Shown here one piece after another: positions 4,731-51,018 of a DNA stretch of 64,000 nt. The notes under the pieces were generated by a model that worked only from the letters and a program-made list of their open reading frames with translations, had not been told where the DNA came from and made no database searches. Position numbers and translations under genes: made by a program. Numbering within the stretch: the stretch's first letter is position 1; each line of letters begins with the position of its first letter. Origin of the DNA: Leeuwenhoekiella blandensis MED217 (GTDB taxonomy: Bacteria; Bacteroidota; Bacteroidia; Flavobacteriales; Flavobacteriaceae); assembly GCF_000152985.1 (NCBI RefSeq), contig NZ_CH672395.1, forward strand, positions 4,003,823-4,067,822. Direction: 5' to 3'.

Positions 4731-4790
4731 TGTAAAGTTTACTTGACAAAGATAAGTAATATTTTAAATGTAAAGCAAACTTTACATTTA
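4731..4790. promoter_or_regulatory. paired palindromic operator candidates of the XRE operon
   Basis: Two inverted repeats share the half-site GTAAA. 4765-4775 and 4780-4790 form a perfect inverted repeat with 11-bp arms (arm TAAATGTAAAG, spacer CAAA). 4731-4742 (TGTAAAGTTTAC) is a shorter dyad with 5-bp arms. They sit 20-80 bp upstream of the 4TM/XRE/TVP38 operon start. The palindromy is seen directly. Binding by the XRE protein encoded in the same operon is inferred. Confidence 0.6.
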
Positions 4791-4856
4791 TTTTTTATTT
4801 CAGTAAACTACCTTGAGCCAAATATCTGGGTATTATACGCTTTGGCGGTGCCAGCT

Positions 4857-4910
4857 AACTACTTCAGGGCAAGCCTCGGAGAATTAAACCCTTTGGCGGC
4901 GCCAATAAAA
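4857..4910 (+). repeat. dispersed flavobacterial intergenic repeat, copy A (partial)
   Basis: This copy carries the block GGCAAGCCTCGGAG followed about 8 nt later by CCCTTTGGCGGCGCCAATAAAA. It matches copies at 31658-31734 and 52079-52197. A second GGCGGTGCCA block lies just upstream at 4843-4852. The conserved hairpin core is TTGGC-3 nt-GCCAA. It lies between the XRE operon promoter and glycerate kinase. Confidence 0.75.
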
Positions 4911-4946
4911 ACGCTAAATTTCTACAACTAACCCTATCGCCTTATC

Positions 4947-6074
4947 ATGCCTAGAATTCTAATTGCTCCAGATTCTTTTAAAGAAAGTCTTACCGCAACG
5001 CAAGTTTGTAGGGCTATTGCTGAAGGACTCCAAACGATAAATCCCAAGCTGCAAATAGACCAGTTGCCTTTTTCTGACGGCGGCGAAGGTGCTTTTGAAC
5101 TTTTTGAAGCGTTAAATCTGGGAAGCACGATTGCTTGTGATGCTCAGGATCCTCTGGGTCGCTCTATAAGCGCATCTTATTACGGTTTTGAGGATGGAAA
5201 AACTGCCTGGATCGAATTGTCTCAAGCATCGGGAATCGCGCTTTTAAAAGATGCAGAAAAGAATCCGATGCTCACATCAACCTTTGGCACCGGATTACAG
5301 CTGAAGCATGCCTTAGAAAATGGGTTTAAAAACATCCTATTGGGAATAGGCGGAAGCGCAACTAATGATGTCGCAACAGGCATTTTTACCGCTTTAGGCG
5401 GAAAACTTTTAGACCACGCAGAAAATGCTATTCAGGCCCGCGGGGAGCATTTGGGGACTGTAGCTGGTTTAGATTTTGACCACCTCATACCCGAGCTCGA
5501 ATCGGCACAACTTACGGTCGCCTGTGATGTTTCTAACTTGCTACTTGGAGCAACGGGGGCAGCAACTATTTATGCACCGCAAAAAGGTGCTACTCCGGCG
5601 CAGGTCACAGCCCTAGAAAAAGGCGCCGAACATCTAGCGCAAATCATTCAGCAAAAAACAGGAAGAACGATTACAAGCATTGCCGGTGGTGGCGCTGCAG
5701 GAGGAACAGCCGCCGGAATGTACGGCTTCTTCAACAGCAAACTTGAACCCGGCTTTGAATTACTCAGCAAATTGGCAAACTTAGAAGAACGCGTAAAACA
5801 AGCCGATTTGATCATCACAGGAGAAGGAAAAACCGATAACCAAAGTCAGTACGGTAAAGTGCCCTTCAAACTCGCAGAATTGGCTCGTAAGCACAATAAA
5901 CCGCTTTACCTCTTTGCCGGAAGCGTTCAGGCAGATCAAAATGTTTTAACTGCCGCCGGAATCACTAAAGCCATTGCCATTAAAACAGAAACGATGGCTT
6001 TGGAATACGCAAAGACCAATGCTTTTGAGTTGCTTAAAAATGCGGTTGCACACCATTTAAAAACACAACTATAA
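4947..6074 (+). CDS. glycerate kinase (GarK/GlxK family)
   Basis: Phosphorylates D-glycerate to a phosphoglycerate in the cytoplasm, feeding glycerate into glycolysis. The 375-residue length and the motifs APDSFKESLTA (residues 7-17), LPFSDGGEGAFE, GIGGSATNDVATG, SIAGGGAAGGTAAGMYGF and ITGEGKTDNQSQYGKVPF are diagnostic of glycerate kinase family 1 (PF02595). It starts at the ATG after TTATC. A GntP-type permease gene follows after 2 bp, which supports a glycerate uptake and use operon. Which phosphoglycerate (2- or 3-) is made cannot be read from the sequence. Confidence 0.93.
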   Translation: MPRILIAPDSFKESLTATQVCRAIAEGLQTINPKLQIDQLPFSDGGEGAFELFEALNLGSTIACDAQDPLGRSISASYYGFEDGKTAWIELSQASGIALLKDAEKNPMLTSTFGTGLQLKHALENGFKNILLGIGGSATNDVATGIFTALGGKLLDHAENAIQARGEHLGTVAGLDFDHLIPELESAQLTVACDVSNLLLGATGAATIYAPQKGATPAQVTALEKGAEHLAQIIQQKTGRTITSIAGGGAAGGTAAGMYGFFNSKLEPGFELLSKLANLEERVKQADLIITGEGKTDNQSQYGKVPFKLAELARKHNKPLYLFAGSVQADQNVLTAAGITKAIAIKTETMALEYAKTNAFELLKNAVAHHLKTQL

Positions 6075-6076
6075 CT

Positions 6077-7414
6077 ATGGGCCTCGATCTACTCTATATT
6101 TTACTTGTTGTTATTTGGATCATCGTGGGCACAAGCTACCTGCGCTGGCATCCCTTTTTCGTATTGCTTATTAGCGCCTTAGGCCTGGCCTTTCTTCTTC
6201 AGATCCCATTAGAAGAAATCCCGGAAACGATAAGCACGGGTTTTGGCGCAATGTTTAAAAATATAGGACTGCTGATTCTTTTTGGCGCGTGGATTGGCGT
6301 GGCGCTAGAAACTACCAATGCCACAACTGCCATTGCTAAAGGCATCATTAAAAAACTCACCATTTTACCCTTACCTTTTGTCATAAGTGCTTTGGGCTAT
6401 CTCGTTTCGATCCCGGTTTTTTGTGATGCCGCTTTTGTTATTTTAGCTCCGTTAACCAAAAAACTAGCGCTCAACAATACCGCCAGACGTAACGCCTTAA
6501 CAGTTGCGCTTTCCACCGGATTGTTTTCGGCTCACGTATTGGTGCCACCAACTCCGGGACCTTTGGCAGCTGCGGGCAATCTTCAGCTCGAAAATTTATA
6601 CCTGTTGCTTTTAGCAGGCGGAATTTTTGGTCTTGTACTGATGCTTATCGGTGCCTTTTTCTCGTATTATTTCTTCAGAAAAAGCAATCAGCACGATGCA
6701 TTTGATCGCAACAATTTGGAAACCTATTTTGATCAAAACACCGATCTTCCTTCATTTTCAGCAGCCATTTGGCCTTTGGCACTTCCTATTGTACTAATGG
6801 CAGCAGCTTCAATCATCCCTCTGTTTTTTGAAGGTTCCAATCTATTCATCGATATACTTCTATTTCTGGGAGATCCTGCCATTGCCCTTCTAGCCGGTGT
6901 ATTAGTTGCCTTCAGCATCTGTAAAAAACAACAACGAGATATTTCTGAAATTATTAAAAAAGGAATGGAGCAAGCTGCTCCTATTCTCTTGATTACAGCG
7001 ATGGGTGGCGCTTTGGGAACCGTTATTCAAACCGCAAATCTTACCGAAGGGATCAATTTAGAATCTTTTAGTAATGGATTGGGCTTGGCGATTCCTTTTA
7101 TATTGGCCGCTTTACTCAAATCGGCTCAAGGTTCTTCTACCGTCGCGATCATCACCATAAGCTCTATAATGCTGCCGTTGCTTCCTGCATTAGGTTTTGA
7201 TTCTGAACTGGGCAAAGTATGGGTAATTCTAGCCATCGGAGCAGGATCTCTCACCGTATCGCACGCTAATGATTCGTATTTCTGGATCGTAAGTCAACTG
7301 GGAGAAATGCCGGTAAAAGAAGCCTACCGCAAACACACCTTAGGCACCTTGCTTCAAGGAGTCGTGGGGTTTGTTATTCTGTTTTGTACGTATAGCGTGT
7401 ATTCGGCCTTTTAA
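6077..7414 (+). CDS. GntP-family organic acid:H+ symporter, probable glycerate permease
   Basis: A 445-residue integral membrane protein with 12-14 hydrophobic helices and GntP-family motifs: GFGAMFKNIGLLILFGAWIG, SIPVFCDAAFVILAPL, HVLVPPTPGPLAAAGNL and SAQGSSTVAIITISSI. The family carries gluconate and related sugar acids. Pairing with glycerate kinase makes glycerate the likely substrate (inference). It is translated from the same transcript, 2 bp after the kinase stop. The tRNA-Asn terminator downstream could stop this transcript as well. Confidence 0.88.
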   Translation: MGLDLLYILLVVIWIIVGTSYLRWHPFFVLLISALGLAFLLQIPLEEIPETISTGFGAMFKNIGLLILFGAWIGVALETTNATTAIAKGIIKKLTILPLPFVISALGYLVSIPVFCDAAFVILAPLTKKLALNNTARRNALTVALSTGLFSAHVLVPPTPGPLAAAGNLQLENLYLLLLAGGIFGLVLMLIGAFFSYYFFRKSNQHDAFDRNNLETYFDQNTDLPSFSAAIWPLALPIVLMAAASIIPLFFEGSNLFIDILLFLGDPAIALLAGVLVAFSICKKQQRDISEIIKKGMEQAAPILLITAMGGALGTVIQTANLTEGINLESFSNGLGLAIPFILAALLKSAQGSSTVAIITISSIMLPLLPALGFDSELGKVWVILAIGAGSLTVSHANDSYFWIVSQLGEMPVKEAYRKHTLGTLLQGVVGFVILFCTYSVYSAF

Positions 7415-7451
7415 TGGATAAGATTGTGGTACTAAACAAACCATCTACAAA

Positions 7452-7484
7452 CAAAAAAGCCTCAACTACAAGTAGTTAAGGCTT
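7452..7484 (-). terminator. intrinsic terminator of tRNA-Asn
   Basis: The stem 7457-7469/7472-7484 (AAGCCT.AACTAC with GTAGTT.AGGCTT) has one U-G wobble when read on the minus strand. It is followed there by TTTTTT at 7458-7453. Confidence 0.75.
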
Positions 7485-7491
7485 AATTTTG

Positions 7492-7565
7492 CTCCCCCTC
7501 TTGGGCTCGAACCAAGGACCCTTTGATTAACAGTCAAATGCTCTAACCAACTGAGCTAAGGAGGA
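7492..7565 (-). tRNA. tRNA-Asn (anticodon GTT)
   Basis: The minus strand reads as a 74-nt cloverleaf. The acceptor stem is TCCTCCT/AGGGGGA with discriminator G. The D arm is AGCTCAGTTGGTTAGAGC. The anticodon stem-loop TTTGACTGTTAATCAAA has anticodon GTT, and the T arm is TTGGTTCGAGCCCAA. No CCA is encoded. Confidence 0.96.
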
Positions 7566-17577: not shown

Positions 17578-18732
17578 ATGGAATTTGCTTCAAATCACTT
17601 TGACTATATCATGCTCGGCGCCGGACTTTCGGGCTTGATGCTGGCGTATCGCATGAGTCAGGATGCTTTTTTCAAGGATAAATCAGTTTTAATTCTTGAT
17701 AAGTCAGACAAAACAAAGAACGATCGCACCTGGTGTTTTTGGAGTGAAAACACGAGGGAGTGGGATTCTATTATTTCAAAAAAATGGAGCAACATTTGTT
17801 TTAAAAGCACAGGATTTGATGCTGAAATTCCCCTTACCAACTACACCTACAACAAAATTGAAGGACTCGACTTTTACCAATTTCTTTTTGAAAAGCTTCA
17901 GTCTTCAAAAAACATTGTTTTTAAAACGGAAACCTATATTTCACATATAGAAACTCCAACCTCGGTTGTGGTGCAAACACAAGCGGCCCGATACACAGCG
18001 GCAAAAATGTTTACCAGTATTCTTCCTGTGGAAAGACTTACCGATCAAAATCGATATCCCGTTTTACAACAGCATTTTATAGGTTGGGAAGTATGTACTC
18101 AAGAGTCCATTTTTGAACCGGAAGTGGCTACGTTTATGGATTTCTCAATACCTCAAAAAGGTAACACGCGCTTTATATATGTTTTGCCTACGGCGAAAAA
18201 TAAAGCCTTGGTAGAATACACGCTTTTTTCTGAAAACTTACTTCCTAAAACCGAATATGAAGCAGCTATTGAAGATTATATGGATGCCTTGGGGGCTTCA
18301 GAATATCAAATAACGGCAACAGAGCAAGGCAGCATCCCGATGACCGCGTATCCTTTTGAACAACACAACACTCAAAATGTGTTACACATAGGTACAGCCG
18401 GCGGCTGGACCCGCGGAAGCACTGGTTACACCTTTACATACACCTTAAAACGTACCGAACAACTAATTGATTTTTTAAAAACAGAAACCGACTTTTCCCA
18501 GTTTAAAATAGCCGATCGCTACCGCTGGTATGACTCAATTTTTCTCGATGTTCTATATCGCAGAAACGAAATGGGCGCTGATCTTTTCACACGTATGTTT
18601 CAAAAAAATGATGTTGCTTCAATTTTTAGATTTCTAGATGGGGAAAGCAGTCTCAAAGACGATTTGAACATAATCTTAAGTATGCCCAAAAAAGAGTTTA
18701 TCAAATCATTTTTGGGTTTTACAAAACATTAA
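17578..18732 (+). CDS. crtY: lycopene beta-cyclase
   Basis: Converts lycopene to beta-carotene; in flavobacteria this leads on to zeaxanthin, the usual yellow pigment. 384 residues with an N-terminal Rossmann dinucleotide-binding motif DYIMLGAGLSGLMLAY (Gly14, Gly16, Gly19). Family signatures are DRTWCFWSE, GSIPMTAYPFEQ and IGTAGGWTRGSTGYTF. It stands alone: no crtB, crtI or crtZ is in the window, so the rest of the pathway must lie elsewhere. It is convergent with the GH43 gene with a 4-bp overlap of coding ends. The inverted repeat TTAAGGTT/AACCTTAA (18729-18736/18750-18757) spans both stops. Confidence 0.93.
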   Translation: MEFASNHFDYIMLGAGLSGLMLAYRMSQDAFFKDKSVLILDKSDKTKNDRTWCFWSENTREWDSIISKKWSNICFKSTGFDAEIPLTNYTYNKIEGLDFYQFLFEKLQSSKNIVFKTETYISHIETPTSVVVQTQAARYTAAKMFTSILPVERLTDQNRYPVLQQHFIGWEVCTQESIFEPEVATFMDFSIPQKGNTRFIYVLPTAKNKALVEYTLFSENLLPKTEYEAAIEDYMDALGASEYQITATEQGSIPMTAYPFEQHNTQNVLHIGTAGGWTRGSTGYTFTYTLKRTEQLIDFLKTETDFSQFKIADRYRWYDSIFLDVLYRRNEMGADLFTRMFQKNDVASIFRFLDGESSLKDDLNIILSMPKKEFIKSFLGFTKH

Positions 18733-20084
18733 GGTTTATACGGCGCGACAACCTTAAGTTTATCTCCCGAAAGGTCTACCTCAAATAAATGCGGAACTCT
18801 GTGATACTTCCCATTAACTACCGCGTGGCTGTGTGCTGCCATAAGTGTTTTGCCGTCAAAAGTTTTGAACAACATACCATGGCCATAATTGCGGGGCGTG
18901 ATGGGATCCTTTTCCTGAATCCACGGCCCGTCTAAAGTGCCACTTTCAGAATAAGCAACACCTTGCACGTACTCATTATAGATCCAGCTTGTCCACAACA
19001 TTCCTAGTTTTCCGGTTTCGGTTTTAAACAGGAATGGACCGTCAGTAACTTTATTAGGTTTATCATTTCCGTCTTTGTCTTTTTCGCGTGACCAGGGAGA
19101 AGCGCTGGCTTTAAATAACAATTCGCCATTCCCTACCGAACCGCTTAGATCAGGTTTCAGTTCAATTTTTTCTATGGTTCCGTTTCCATTTTGCAACCAT
19201 TCATAACAATACACCATATAAGGTTTCCCGTCTTCGTCTACCCAAAAAGTTCCGTCTAAGGTTGGCATATCTGCAGGCAAATACGTCTCGTCTTCCATAG
19301 GTTTGTATGGTCCAAAAGCCGAATCACTAACTAAAATGTGACTCGCGCGCCGTTCGATCACATTGCCGTCGACCGTGTCTATTTTCACCGCCCTGTTGGT
19401 GAAAGTGGCAAAATCGTAATACTTGTCTTTGTATTGATGTAATTCTGCCGCCCAAATCATAGGTTTGGGTCCCATCCAGGAGTCGGGATCGGTCTCTACA
19501 ACATCAAACGGACCTTCCCAATAGGCCAGGTCTTTGCTTTTCCACATCTTGCCACCGGTACCCGTCATATAATACATTTGGGTCACTTCATCTGCCAAAA
19601 TATAAGGATCGCTCAGCCGTATGGAATCTATTGCTGTTAAGTGGGTTCTGTCTTTTTTTACGTGAATAGACTGCCCGGTAAGCTTCCAGCTGCCCTTTAT
19701 TTTCTCGAGCATTCGTATTTCTACGGTTTTACTTATACTTCCGTCAGGTGCGGTTGATTGCTCATCGTGACTTACCCAGGCCTCATTGTCGTTGATGTAA
19801 AATTTATAATTTGAATTTACCGAAGTTCCTCCCGAGCCCATCATCCCTTCCGGCGGGTTGATCATCAATTGAGGATCCAGATCGATCACTTGTCCGTCGC
19901 CGGTAGATATCAAAATACGGCTGTAAGGTTTAATTGCCCAGCAGCTCGCGTGTCCCTCAACATCACCAGAACGCCACGTAGCCGATTCTTTTTCTAAAAC
20001 CTTGATGATCGCTGCTTCTTCTTTGCTTTGCGCAAAAACGCTAGCAAAAACGAATAAAAACAGCACAAAAAATATATTCTTCAT
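18729..20084 (-). CDS. secreted GH43-type glycosidase with N-terminal NTF2-like domain
   Basis: About 451 residues from ATG 20084 (MKNIFFVLFLFVFASVFAQ, a signal peptide); the TTG further upstream is less likely. Residues about 20-130 look like a SnoaL/DUF4440 (NTF2-like) domain (EKESATWRSGDVEGHASCWA; NEAWVSHDEQ; VEIRMLEKIKGSWKLTG). The rest is a five-bladed GH43-like propeller: SDPYILAD, MIWAAELHQYKDKYYDF, LDGTFWVDEDGKPYMVY and VTDGPFLFKTETGKLGMLW carry the candidate catalytic Asp and Glu residues. GH43 enzymes cut arabinan or xylan side chains; the substrate here is unknown. No other CAZyme or SusCD pair is adjacent. Confidence 0.8.
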   Translation of the reverse strand: MKNIFFVLFLFVFASVFAQSKEEAAIIKVLEKESATWRSGDVEGHASCWAIKPYSRILISTGDGQVIDLDPQLMINPPEGMMGSGGTSVNSNYKFYINDNEAWVSHDEQSTAPDGSISKTVEIRMLEKIKGSWKLTGQSIHVKKDRTHLTAIDSIRLSDPYILADEVTQMYYMTGTGGKMWKSKDLAYWEGPFDVVETDPDSWMGPKPMIWAAELHQYKDKYYDFATFTNRAVKIDTVDGNVIERRASHILVSDSAFGPYKPMEDETYLPADMPTLDGTFWVDEDGKPYMVYCYEWLQNGNGTIEKIELKPDLSGSVGNGELLFKASASPWSREKDKDGNDKPNKVTDGPFLFKTETGKLGMLWTSWIYNEYVQGVAYSESGTLDGPWIQEKDPITPRNYGHGMLFKTFDGKTLMAAHSHAVVNGKYHRVPHLFEVDLSGDKLKVVAPYKP

Positions 20085-47248: not shown

Positions 47249-48016
47249 ATGAAAATAATCACATATAACGTAAACGGAATTCGTGCAGCTATTCGTAAAG
47301 GTCTTCTTGACTGGCTAAAAGCTGCTAACCCAGATGTACTTTTACTGCAAGAAACCAAGGCCCATAAAGAGCAACTAGACATAGATTTGTTTGAAGAAAC
47401 CGGCTACCATGATTATTGGTTTAGCGCACAAAAAAAAGGATACAGCGGCGTAGCGATTTTAAGTAAAAAAGAACCCGATAATATCGTGCACGGCACCGGT
47501 ATTGATTATATGGATCACGAAGGACGTAACATCAGAGCAGACTTTGGCGACCTGAGTGTTATGAGTATGTATTTACCAAGTGGGACAAATGTAGACCGTC
47601 TAGAACATAAGCTAAAATATATGGCAGACTTTCAGGCCTATTCTGAAGAGCTGCGCAAAACACGCCCTAATCTTATCGTGAGTGGCGATTATAATATTTG
47701 CCACGAACCTATAGACATTCACGATCCCGTACGTCTTAAAAATGTAAGTGGTTTTTTACCGGTAGAGCGTGAGTGGCTTAGCGGCTTTATCAACAGTGGT
47801 TTTACAGACAGCTTTAGACATCTTAATCCCAATGTTGAACAATACAGCTGGTGGAGTTATCGCGCAGATGCACGTGCCAATAACAAAGGCTGGCGACTGG
47901 ATTATAATATGGTAAGCGAACCCTTAAAAGACAAGATCAAGCGCGCTGTTATTCTTCCGGAAGCAAAGCATAGTGATCATTGTCCGGCATTGGTAGAGCT
48001 CGATCTCAACACGTAA
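47249..48016 (+). CDS. xth: exodeoxyribonuclease III (AP endonuclease)
   Basis: 255 residues of the EEP fold: LQETKAHKEQ (metal Glu), GYSGVAILSK, SGDYNICH (Asp/Asn) and the terminal HSDHCPALVELDL with the catalytic Asp-His. It repairs abasic sites and 3' blocks in DNA. Usual length. It starts at the ATG after TTAAAGC. The transcript runs into a 120-bp gap before the ompA-type gene. Confidence 0.94.
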   Translation: MKIITYNVNGIRAAIRKGLLDWLKAANPDVLLLQETKAHKEQLDIDLFEETGYHDYWFSAQKKGYSGVAILSKKEPDNIVHGTGIDYMDHEGRNIRADFGDLSVMSMYLPSGTNVDRLEHKLKYMADFQAYSEELRKTRPNLIVSGDYNICHEPIDIHDPVRLKNVSGFLPVEREWLSGFINSGFTDSFRHLNPNVEQYSWWSYRADARANNKGWRLDYNMVSEPLKDKIKRAVILPEAKHSDHCPALVELDLNT

Positions 48017-48921
48017 ACAACCTCAGCACGAGCCTCGGGCTATTTGATTTGGATCATCAGGAAAATGTATTGCTTTTGTCTTAACCGAAGCCAATAATTT
48101 TAACCCCAAAACGTTGATTATAAAAAACAACCATAACCCTATGTTTAGAAAAGTCTGCCTTATCGTGGGCGCTGCCGCCACACTATCTTCGTGTGTTTCA
48201 GCAAAAGTGTATAAAGATCTTGAAGCTCGGTTTGCCAATCTCAAAGCCGAAAATCAAGAATTACAACAAGACCTCTCTCAGGAAGAACGCTTGAGAAAGC
48301 AATTTGAAGATCAAGCAGCTCAGCTAGAAAAAGAGCTCGCTCAAGCGACAAGTGAGCGTGATGATTTACAGCGTAAGTACGCCACAGCGCAAGCCAATCT
48401 TAAGAACTTGCAGGATTCTTATGACGCGCTTGAAGCCAATAGCTCTAAAGCTTTAGCCGAAAACTCAAAGCAAAATCGAGAGCTTTTAGCACAATTAGAT
48501 GAAAAGCAGGCCGATCTCGCCGCTGAACAAAACCGACTGGAAAAAATGCAACGCGATCTCACCGAGCGTTCGCGCCGTGTTGAAGAGTTAGAGTCAATGA
48601 TCGCTGCAAAAGATGCCAAAATGCGTGCATTGAAAGATGCAATTTCTAAAGCCCTCGTAGATTTTGAAGGAAACGGTCTTACCGTAGAACAACGTGACGG
48701 AAAAGTTTATGTTTCGCTAGAGAACAAACTACTTTTTGAAAGCGGAAGCTGGAATGTAGGTGCCAAAGGACGACAAGCAGTAAACCAACTGGGTAGCGTA
48801 TTGGCTCAAAATCCTGAAATCGCTGTTCTGATCGAAGGGCATACCGATGATGTACCGTATGGCGGCAACGGACCTTTAAAAGACAACTGGGATCTTTCTA
48901 CTAAACGCGCTACAGCCATCT

Positions 48922-48929
48922 TAAGTTTG
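48922..48929 (+). promoter_or_regulatory. -7 half of a promoter completed only in the circular IS110 form
   Basis: TAAGTTTG at the extreme left end fits TAnnTTTG. In the inserted state no TTG lies 17-23 nt upstream. If the ends are joined with one copy of the 2-nt core, the right-end TTG (50102-50104) comes to lie 17 nt before it, giving TTG-N17-TAnnTTTG. The predicted transcript would start near 48936, just before the structured RNA. Confidence 0.6.
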
Positions 48930-48935
48930 ATTCTG

Positions 48936-49110
48936 TTTAAATTATAGCATTAATCAGAAAGAACAAAAGAGCAGGTTAAGGTTACTATAGCCGTTGGAAC
49001 TTCAGATTCCGTCAACATTGATAATCACTGCTCTTTTCTACTTAGATTTCGATCAGTTCTGTGAGGCGCTAACCTCGATTTAAAGTTGTTGAACACCAAG
49101 TAGATCGTCC
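48936..49110 (+). ncRNA. predicted IS110 bridge RNA (seekRNA)
   Basis: There are two consecutive stem-loops with large internal loops. Loop 1 is closed by AAAAGAGCAG/CTGCTCTTTT (48965-48974/49028-49037) and has apical stem GGAA/TTCC (48996-48999/49007-49010). Its 5' side CTATAGCCGTT (48985-48995) can pair, with three G-U wobbles, to the strand opposite the left flank CTACAGCCATC (48910-48920). Its 3' side TCAACA (49012-49017) is complementary to the right flank TGTTGA (50123-50128). Loop 2 is closed by TCTACTT/AAGTAGA (49037-49043/49098-49104) with apical GAGG/CCTC (49063-49066/49073-49076). Its 5' side TCAGTTCT (49053-49060) is identical to the element's right end (50114-50121). Its 3' side GATTTAA (49077-49083) can pair with the left end TTAAGTT (48921-48927). 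This is the target-loop/donor-loop plan of IS110 bridge RNAs. Confidence 0.75.
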
Positions 49111-49129
49111 TTTCCAAAATCTAATTGTT

Positions 49130-50095
49130 ATGAGTAAATATAGTGAAACTTATGGAGTAGATATTAGCAAAGATGTCTTTGATGTAGCAAATACAACAGG
49201 CTTTTACCGTCAATACCCTAATACTGTTGCCGGGTTCAAAAAGTTCATTAAAGAGCTTGAAAAATCAGCAATTGTCGTTATGGAAGCAACCGGTTATTAT
49301 CATTATTGTTTAGCACAATTCCTGTTTGAATCTGGCCAACCGGTTTCTGTAGTAAATCCATTATCTGTAAAGAGGTTTATACAGATGCGTTTATCTAAAG
49401 TAAAGACCGATAAGAGTGATGCTAAAGCCATATGTGACTATGCTTTGATCAACCCAGTGCCTTTATATACGGGAAAGGATCAGAATCAAGCAGAATCTCT
49501 ACAACTTCTACGTTTATTAGAGCTGTACTTAAAACAGCGCACTCAGCTAAAGAATAAAATTCACGGAGAGCAAGCTTTAGGTATACCTTCAAAAGCGGTT
49601 TTTAGATCATTGAACAGATCAAAAAAGATATTGGATAAAGAGATAAAATCCCTAGAAACGCGCTTATTATCTCTAGTTAAAGCAGAGCACCAGCAACAGT
49701 TGACTAATTTAAAGAGTATCCCAGGTTTAGGAGATAAAACAGCAGCTTTATTGATCGTGTTAACTGATGGTTTTACCAAATTTGAAACTGCATCGCAGCT
49801 TTGTAGCTTTGCAGGCACAACGCCCACCATACGGCAATCAGGGAGCAGTGTCAGGGGTAAAAGCAGAATCAGTAAAATGGGTAACCAAAAACTCAGAAAT
49901 CTTTTGTTTTTATGTGCCTTCTCTGCAAGTAAATACAATACTGCCTGTAGGAAAATTTATGAACGTATTATAGCAAAAGGCAAAAGTAAAAAGCTAGCAC
50001 TAATAGCAGTTATAAATAAACTAATAAAACAAGCTTTTGCAATCGCAAAGAGCGGCTTGCCCTATGACCCAAATTATGCGACAAAATTGAACTAA
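49130..50095 (+). CDS. IS110-family DEDD transposase (recombinase)
   Basis: 321 residues. The N-terminal RuvC-like DEDD domain shows GVDISKDVFDV (first Asp), VVMEATGYYHY (Glu), and KTDKSDAKAICDYAL (Asp pair). A helical linker is followed by the C-terminal Transposase_20 domain with SIPGLGDKTAALLI, LCSFAGTTPTIRQSGSS and GKSRISKMGNQKLRNLLFL, which holds the candidate nucleophile serine (GSSVRGKS). Complete and without frameshift, so the element may be active. The ATG follows the structured left end by about 20 nt. Confidence 0.95.
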   Translation: MSKYSETYGVDISKDVFDVANTTGFYRQYPNTVAGFKKFIKELEKSAIVVMEATGYYHYCLAQFLFESGQPVSVVNPLSVKRFIQMRLSKVKTDKSDAKAICDYALINPVPLYTGKDQNQAESLQLLRLLELYLKQRTQLKNKIHGEQALGIPSKAVFRSLNRSKKILDKEIKSLETRLLSLVKAEHQQQLTNLKSIPGLGDKTAALLIVLTDGFTKFETASQLCSFAGTTPTIRQSGSSVRGKSRISKMGNQKLRNLLFLCAFSASKYNTACRKIYERIIAKGKSKKLALIAVINKLIKQAFAIAKSGLPYDPNYATKLN

Positions 50096-50327
50096 ATACT
50101 CTTGGATTTTAACTCAGTTCTTTGTTGAGATTTTACGTCAAAATGCACAGATTGATCCTAAAAATCTTACCGCTGCCGGTCGTGGTGAGTTTGCTCCGGT
50201 TGCTACAAACAGTACCGCAGAAGGTAAAGCAAAAAACAGAAGAATTGAAGTCATTCTTACGCCTAAGCTAGATGAAGTAACTAAGTTGCTCAACGATATC
50301 TAGCATCTAAACACCAACAAACGTGGC

Positions 50328-50358
50328 AAACCCCGGCTTTTAAAGTCGGGGTTTTCTT
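50328..50358 (+). terminator. intrinsic terminator of the split ompA-type gene
   Basis: AAACCCCG..C-TTTTAAA-G..CGGGGTTTT then CTTTT (50328-50335 with 50347-50354). Confidence 0.85.
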
Positions 50359-50497
50359 TTGTCTATTACGTCCTAAAAGAGACCGGTCAAAAACCTTTTC
50401 CGTAGAAACACCGTACATATAAGTAAGTGATTCACAACTCTCAGTTCAGTTCCGCTTCAAACGATATAGATATGTAACAACTTTAAATACGATCATT

Positions 50498-50974
50498 ATG
50501 AATAGAAAAGAATTTATTTTTTCGGTAGGAAAAGGAGTATTAATTGCGTGTTCGGGCGCTTGTATGATGTCTTCGTGTAGTTCTGGCGACGATGCCGGTA
50601 TGGAAACTATGGGAGGGTCACAAAGCGGTTCTGGAGGAAATTCTGGGAGCAGCGGCACTATGGTGAACCTTGAGATCTCAGAGCTTCCCAATGTAGGTGA
50701 TCAAAAACGCGTGAGCAACGTACTGTTCATTCGCATAGCTACAGGCAATGACGTATCTTCTTTTGTCGCAACAGAGGCGGTTTGCCCGCATCAGGGTGGA
50801 CAATTGGTTTTTCAAAGCGAGGAGAATGTGATTGAATGTCAGCTGCATTTTGCACAATATGAAGTGGATGGCGACACGGTGCAAGGCCCACAAAATTCTG
50901 CAGGAAGCACGCGTGACCTAAGAATTTATGCGACCTCTTTAGATGGAAACACTTTAACGGCAACTGTAAGCTAA
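50498..50974 (+). CDS. Rieske [2Fe-2S] lipoprotein
   Basis: 158 residues. The N-terminal signal ends in a Cys-rich stretch (SGACMMSSCSSGDD) suited to lipidation. A Ser/Gly-rich linker (about 38-54) leads to a Rieske domain with cluster ligands Cys96-x-His98 (CPHQGG) and Cys114-x2-His117 (CQLHF). The second loop lacks the usual Cys-x-x-His-Gly ending (FAQYEV instead of HG). It looks like a single electron-transfer protein at the envelope; no oxidoreductase partner is adjacent. The downstream aldo/keto reductase is 44 bp away but has its own AT-rich leader. Confidence 0.85.
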   Translation: MNRKEFIFSVGKGVLIACSGACMMSSCSSGDDAGMETMGGSQSGSGGNSGSSGTMVNLEISELPNVGDQKRVSNVLFIRIATGNDVSSFVATEAVCPHQGGQLVFQSEENVIECQLHFAQYEVDGDTVQGPQNSAGSTRDLRIYATSLDGNTLTATVS

Positions 50975-51018
50975 AACCAGTAGACATTGTAATACCTTCG
51001 CAAGAAATTCAGATTTAA

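What the first reader, a model, noticed from the sequence alone, without database searches (positions are those of the whole stretch)
48921..50122. IS110 element whose predicted bridge RNA matches both its own ends and its insertion site in ompA
Seen in the sequence: the non-coding left end has two tandem hairpins with internal loops. In the first loop, CTATAGCCGTT (48985-48995) pairs over 11 contiguous positions (three G-U wobbles) with the strand opposite the ompA flank CTACAGCCATC ending at the left junction. TCAACA (49012-49017) is complementary to TGTTGA, starting just past the 2-nt repeat at the right junction. In the second loop, TCAGTTCT (49053-49060) is identical to the element's right end, and GATTTAA (49077-49083) pairs with its left end TTAAGTT. 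Each guide touches or nearly touches an apical stem, and the order is target-left, target-right, donor-left, donor-right. Established: IS110-family recombinases use such a bridge RNA (seekRNA) with target and donor loops. Inference: this is a working RNA-guided element in a flavobacterium, with a 2-nt core TT (or CT).
Basis: partly seen in the sequence, partly recalled or inferred. Interest (0 to 1): 0.92.

Follow-up and report, generated by a model that had tools for sequence, protein, structure and literature searches.

The report
RNA-guided jumping element aimed at integrons
A bacterial jumping gene carries a short RNA whose sequence matches the places where it lands; its other copies and its relatives bear this out, and they indicate that its usual landing sites are the joints of gene-cassette arrays, with the hit in ompA a look-alike.

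Summary
The window carries an IS110-group element (48920-50122, 1203 bp) whose left end encodes a two-hairpin bridge RNA with target and donor guides at the stated places.

Three tests support the RNA-guided reading. The structure co-varies among 37 relatives: 19 of 31 pairs change on both sides, 0 of 500 shuffles. All six full copies in this genome sit at guide-matching sites. Over 80 guide/flank pairs with 40 guides, guides fit their own flanks better than permuted guides, 0 of 10,000.

One part is corrected: the shared 2-nt core is not in the target. Empty sites mostly read left-target|TGTT with nothing between (43 of 48 pattern hits, none with 3 nt). All 9 congeners with a matching ompA lack the extra bases. 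CTT belongs to both ends of the element.

One part is new here: the usual target is one end of attC-like sites in flavobacterial cassette arrays; ompA looks like an off-array match. Attack on attC was known for IS1111-group elements. An IS110-group clade doing so, with unlike core bases in target and donor, is a new variant of a known kind. Activity was not tested.

The parts
48920..50122 (+). IS110-group insertion sequence, CTTAAG...GTTCTT, 1203 bp
   Evidence: six full copies in the genome; ends fixed by empty sites and ompA of congeners
48910..48919 (+). left target half in ompA (CTACAGCCAT)
50123..50128 (+). right target half in ompA (TGTTGA)
48141..48919 (+). 5' part of the interrupted OmpA-family gene (start codon at 48141 presumed; the listed ORF starts at TTG 48114)
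   Evidence: Pfam OmpA PF00691; ORF list
50123..50303 (+). 3' part of the interrupted OmpA-family gene
   Evidence: flanks joined without CTT read in frame as in congeners
48965..49037 (+). target-binding hairpin: outer stem 48965-48974/49028-49037, inner stem 48980-48983/49023-49026, apical stem 48996-48999/49007-49010
   Evidence: RNAalifold and pair counts on 37 relatives; coordinates
48985..48995 (+). left target guide; positions 48986-48993 carry the match across relatives
   Evidence: permutation tests
49012..49017 (+). right target guide TCAACA, complementary to TGTTGA
   Evidence: right flank begins TGTT in 74 of 82 distinct insertions
49038..49103 (+). donor-binding hairpin: outer stem 49038-49043/49098-49103, inner stem 49048-49051/49090-49093, apical stem 49062-49066/49073-49077
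49053..49060 (+). left donor guide TCAGTTCT, identical to the right end of the element
   Evidence: the variable bases of guide and right end go together in 78 of 80 insertions
49077..49085 (+). right donor guide GATTTAAAG, partly complementary to the left end CTTAAGTT
   Evidence: two registers possible; alignment of relatives
49130..50095 (+). IS110 recombinase, 321 aa, D11/E52/D94/D97 and S237

Best explanation
This is an IS110-group insertion sequence guided by a bridge RNA from its left end. After excision its abutted ends (GTTCTT|CTTAAG) would form the donor. [quoted passage not shown] The recombinase cuts and exchanges strands at left-target|TGTT without duplicating target bases. The usual target is the R''/L'' end of attC-like sites; the ompA copy is at a site that fits the same guides by chance. 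Shown here: RNA covariation, guide/flank covariation, the form of empty sites, attC-like context. Inferred from IS621 and ISEc21: the circle, the transcript, the strand chemistry and present activity.
For: Homology to IS621 with the catalytic letters kept. RNA covariation, 0 of 500 shuffles. Six of six full copies at guide-matching sites. Guide/left-flank permutation: identity at positions 2-9 6.80 of 8 against 4.93, maximum 5.81, 0 of 10,000. Right flank TGTT in 74 of 82. Left donor guide and right end agree at their variable bases in 78 of 80. Empty sites: 43 of 48 with nothing between the halves; own paralogue; ompA of 9 congeners. attC-like arms in 86 of 133 sites, shuffled mean 24.1, maximum 41.
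Against: The single sequence does not fold unusually well. The right donor guide has no single clean register in this copy. In 16 of 80 insertions the right end reads ACAGTACT where the guide reads ACAGTTC, a fixed mismatch. 8 of 82 right flanks do not begin TGTT, five of them reading CTTA. The ompA copy and the copy at 3.48 Mb lack the attC partner arm, and 47 of 133 sites in all do. A first, coarser attC arm test was negative. Relatedness of elements is not modelled in the permutation.
Confidence: 0.85

Rival explanations
1. One reading: target and donor share a 2-nt core (TT or CT), present once in the empty site and once at each junction.
For: CTT is found at both junctions. The 42%-identical Sphingobacterium elements do share AT between target and donor. 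T just before the cut is commoner in occupied than in empty sites (56 of 92 against 16 of 43, Fisher p 0.016).
Against: Empty sites in the loci held have nothing between the halves in 43 of 48 pattern hits and never CTT. ompA of 9 congeners lacks the bases. The two target bases before the cut vary: AT 28, GT 26, GG 17, AA 8, TG 4, GA 3, TT 2, AG 2, GC 1, TA 1 of 92.
Confidence: 0.05
2. The protein itself recognises the site, and the likeness of RNA loops to the flanks is incidental.
For: The right half (TGTT) and the right guide hardly vary in this clade, so that side alone could be protein-read.
Against: The left guide and left flank change together over 40 guides, 0 of 10,000 permutations.
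Confidence: 0.03
3. The copies did not spread by transposition; they were carried along with cassettes or copied by homologous recombination.
For: Three of the six copies share an identical 60-nt left flank inside arrays (121 nt at 99-100%).
Against: Their right flanks differ. Left halves of attC-like sites are alike within an array, so similar left flanks are expected. The copies in ompA and at 3.48 Mb have other surroundings.
Confidence: 0.05

Closest known systems
IS621 (IS110 group, E. coli; bridge RNA)
   Same: Homologous recombinase (E 1.6e-34), RNA in the left end, two loops in the order target then donor, left guide to the bottom strand and right guide to the top strand (passages of PMC11208160 and PMC11208158).
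   Different: IS621 prefers the same CT core in target and donor (passage). Here donor bases before the cut are TT and target bases vary. I saw no counterpart of the 5' stem-loop in the structure predicted here, but did not search for it apart.
ISEc21 (IS110 type, seekRNA)
   Same: Noncoding region upstream of the gene, insertion without duplication of target bases (abstract and passages of PMC11187229).
   Different: Different target; no sequence comparison made here.
IS1111-attC group (ISKpn4, ISPst6)
   Different: There the noncoding region is downstream of the gene; here it is upstream (210 nt left, 27 nt right). So the same kind of target appears to be reached from another group of the family.
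IS110-family elements of Sphingobacterium sp. CZ-2 (L042-L048, L050-L052, L055)
   Same: Related recombinase (41-42% identity) and RNA; the donor junction aligns without gaps.
   Different: Sit at REP-like CGTCATTGCGAGGA sites with a shared AT core: 22 of 22 empty sites in 16 loci scanned have one AT. 'REP-like' is my recalled label.

Membership tests
IS110 family, IS110 group | DEDD RuvC-like domain plus C-terminal transposase domain with conserved serine | tested here: met
IS110 family, IS110 group | long noncoding left end upstream of the gene (in IS1111 it is downstream) | tested here: met
   210 nt on the left against 27 nt on the right
IS110 family, IS110 group | left-end RNA with two loops that match target and donor | tested here: met
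IS110 family, IS110 group | circular form with abutted ends and RNA expressed from it | not testable with these tools
   needs PCR and RNA sequencing
IS621-type bridge recombination (a mechanistic sub-feature; not used by Pfam or NCBIfam to define the family) | same core dinucleotide in target and donor | tested here: not met
   met in the Sphingobacterium relatives by the same kind of test
IS1111 group | noncoding region downstream of the gene | tested here: not met
   27 nt only between stop codon and right end
IS1111 group | subterminal inverted repeats of 7-17 bp | not tested
   no dedicated search made
integron (for the target arrays) | attC sites: RYYYAAC/GTT ends with paired inner arms | tested here: met
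   own partner arm followed by GT[TC] in 86 of 133 sites, shuffled mean 24.1, maximum 41; an earlier 12-nt test was negative
integron (for the target arrays) | IntI integrase with its additional domain | tested here: not met
   0 of 11 genomes searched have a TIGR02249 match over cut-off; the array-side protein of this genome is XerA-like and leaves profile positions 181-240 unmatched

The most novel reading that the evidence does not exclude
A flavobacterial clade of bridge-RNA elements specialised on attC-like sites has given up the shared core: target and donor differ at the two bases before the cut, and strand exchange is steered by pairing of each RNA loop with the incoming strand (handshake pairing) instead of core identity.
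Probability: 0.4. Interest if true: 0.7.

Novelty: new variant of a known kind. Interest (0 to 1): 0.52.

Why it matters
It is a natural test of RNA-guided insertion: 40 guides in related elements, each fitting its own sites better than swapped guides do. If target and donor need not share a core, a limit on where bridge recombinases can be aimed would be relaxed, and this clade shows what to test. It also links an RNA-guided element to cassette arrays in a group of bacteria for which my searches found little in print on integrons.

Tried and rejected
Folding the single RNA was not informative. A first genome pattern search for empty sites used the wrong form, with CTT inside; at up to 1 mismatch it gave 4 hits against 3 control hits. 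With the corrected form and no mismatch five empty sites appear against 2 control hits; three of them lie in attC-like contexts I saw, two I did not examine. My first left-end finder took a wrong TTAACTT in L003, L004 and L006; corrected. L039's left end is probably still mis-called and was left in. A 12-nt arm comparison gave no clear attC signal (mean 7.93 against 7.57 of 12, 75 sites); a 6-nt arm followed by GT[TC] did. Rfam has no match over the left end at E up to 1 (48000-51000 searched). Handshake pairing was tested on natural variation and is only weakly supported: second base 10 of 3,000 shuffles, first base 269, third base 156; Fisher p 0.034 where left-guide position 9 is G; relatedness not controlled. 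No structure prediction and no covariance-model search were run.

Full report
What is there. The element is an IS110-group insertion sequence. The protein at 49130-50095 scores 219 bits on NCBIfam NF033542 (cut-off 140) and has both IS110 Pfam domains. It aligns over residues 8-315 with IS621 (8wt6, E 1.6e-34); D11, E52, D94, D97 and S237 stand where I read the IS621 catalytic residues to be aligned (letters checked; the IS621 residues are from passages of PMC11208158). The genome (4.24 Mb, one contig) holds six full copies and two 3' fragments. Four full copies, the window copy included, are listed at 100% identity (one is 3 nt shorter), the others at 97 and 96%. The closest recombinases come from Flavobacteriaceae, and a genome of the host's own family has element coordinates that match those of Flavobacteriaceae bacterium MAR_2010_72.

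The RNA. I aligned 37 of 46 non-redundant left-end RNAs; the nine most distant were left out. RNAalifold found two tandem hairpins, each with an outer, an inner and an apical stem, and the guides lie in the loops between. 19 of 31 pairs have changes on both sides. 97.7% of cells are paired, against 89.2% in shuffles and 44 to 53% when partners are slid by 1 to 3 columns. None of 500 shuffles reaches any of the five measures. The structure was derived from this same alignment, which favours it in the slide control. The window sequence alone does not fold better than shuffles.

Target guides. In the six copies (L001 to L006), guide positions 2-9 are identical to the flank at 6, 6, 7, 7, 8 and 7 of 8 positions and pairable at 8, 7, 8, 8, 8 and 8, and every right flank begins TGTT. 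For relatives, 153 RNA places in the loci held were reduced to 115 with readable guide and left end; the 38 dropped were 29 without the motif before the guide, 8 without a left end and 1 with a short flank. Repeat fetches of the same insertion were merged, leaving 92 distinct insertions and 80 distinct guide/left-target pairs with 40 guides. Mean identity at positions 2-9 was 6.80 of 8, against 4.93 (maximum 5.81) when guides were permuted, 0 of 10,000. An earlier run on 76 pairs and 38 guides agrees, also 0 of 10,000. Positions 1 and 10 show no excess. Among the 92, 82 have a readable right flank, and 74 of these begin TGTT; the other eight are L013, L020, L062, L094 and L186 (CTTA) and L037, L159 and L199.

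Donor guides. The left donor guide repeats the right end, and the variable bases go together (TCAG with TCAG 58, ACAG with ACAG 18, TTAG with TTAG 2) in 78 of 80 insertions; two do not. In 16 of the 80 the right end reads ACAGTACT where the guide reads ACAGTTC, a fixed mismatch. For the right donor guide two registers are possible.

The ends and the core. Empty sites say otherwise. In the loci held, a pattern of four left-target types followed by 0 to 6 nt and TGTT[AG] hits 48 distinct places: 43 have 0 nt between, 3 have 2, one has 5, one has 6, none has 3. In this genome an empty attC-like site, 95% identical over 85 nt to an occupied one, reads GGTAACA-ACGGCTATAG. ompA was found in 9 of 12 congeners; all 9 are 3 nt shorter at this point than the flanks joined with TT. 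Joined without them, the gene reads ATAIVEILRQ in frame. So the element is CTTAAG...GTTCTT and enters between the two target halves. In 90 of 92 insertions the base before TTAA is C, as this predicts. A similar reading of the Sphingobacterium relatives gives a shared AT: 22 of 22 empty sites hold CGTC-AT-TGCGAGGA and the 11 CZ-2 copies have AT at both ends. The donor junctions align without gaps (GTTCAT|CGTAAGTT and GTTCTT|CTTAAGTT). Hence the flavobacterial clade differs where IS621 and the Sphingobacterium elements have a common core. Its two target bases before the cut are AT 28, GT 26, GG 17, AA 8, TG 4, GA 3, TT 2, AG 2, GC 1 and TA 1, of 92. T just before the cut is commoner in occupied than in empty sites (56 of 92 against 16 of 43, p 0.016), so some preference may remain.

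What the target is. On the other strand most joined sites read: end of a gene, then an RYYYAACA-like end, an arm such as ACGTGTATAATTAATTGC, a variable stretch often with a hairpin, the partner arm, and GTT. Of 133 occupied and empty sites, 86 carry the partner of their own arm followed by GT[TC] (53 of 92 occupied, 33 of 41 empty); with arms shuffled among sites the mean is 24.1 and the maximum 41. A coarser test showed nothing. In the 20 kb around two own copies the non-transposase genes lie mostly on one strand. This is the make-up of integron cassette arrays. No IntI reaches the NCBIfam cut-off in this genome or in 10 relatives. In those 11 genomes, which I chose because they hold element copies, a Tyr recombinase with an N-terminal part matching TIGR02249 lies within 40 kb of 19 of 46 listed copies, against 1.07 expected by rotation (0 of 5,000). 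The one in this genome is XerA-like. The ompA copy and the copy at 3.48 Mb have no such partner arm, so the ompA insertion is best seen as a look-alike hit. Five further sites in the genome fit TAYAGCCRNTGTTR and are empty; the reversed control pattern gives 2.

How it works, most likely. By analogy with IS621 (passages of PMC11208160 and PMC11208158) and ISEc21 (abstract and passages of PMC11187229): excision to a circle, transcription of the RNA, pairing of the two loops with target and donor, serine-linked cleavage and exchange. None of these steps was tested here. Pairing of RNA bases with the incoming strand is only weakly supported by natural variation.

Known and new. Bridge RNA guidance is established; PMC11208160 predicts such an RNA in 85.7% of the IS110-group elements it examined (passage). 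Attack on attC is known for IS1111-group elements (passage of PMC11187229). Integrons are reported from Bacteroidota in reviews (passages of PMC8618304 and PMC9668308; PMC2426708). My searches for print on IS110-group elements at attC or in flavobacteria (openly licensed PubMed Central papers only) listed none that describes this. They do not cover subscription papers, preprints or ISfinder. Non-CT cores were tested for IS621 with target, donor and RNA changed together (passage); natural elements with unlike target and donor cores did not come up in the passages I saw.

Noticed in passing
L125, L127 (own genome 2.756-2.780 Mb); G033, G036, G073, G125, G133, G238, G247, G345: attC-like cassette arrays without an IntI over cut-off, near a XerA-like Tyr recombinase with an extra N-terminal part (405 aa in this genome). 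Possibly an integron-like system with another integrase.
   Followed up: partly
L013, L020, L062, L094, L186, right flanks: Five of 82 insertions have CTTA (like the element's own left end) where others have TGTT; perhaps recombination with donor-like sites.
   Followed up: no
L021 and L190 (same insertion), left flank: The left flank ends in 12 nt identical to the element's right end (AGCTCAGTTCTT).
   Followed up: no
L007 and L008 (own genome 2.213 and 3.853 Mb): 3' fragments of the element, one of them (L007) still followed by TGTTG.
   Followed up: no
L042-L048, L050-L052, L055 (Sphingobacterium sp. CZ-2): Eleven copies of a 41-42% identical IS110 element at CGTCATTGCGAGGA-type sites, with matching guides and a shared AT core.
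   Followed up: partly
L125:10319-11866 and 18059-19606, split copy at 4741-7508: Another transposase-like ORF (515 aa) recurs three times in the same array; one copy is interrupted by two ORFs on the other strand that look like an IS3-type pair (names recalled, not searched).
   Followed up: no
window 49130-50095: The recombinase also has a sub-threshold match to TIGR-Tas endonuclease NF052498 (35 bits, cut-off 100).
   Followed up: no
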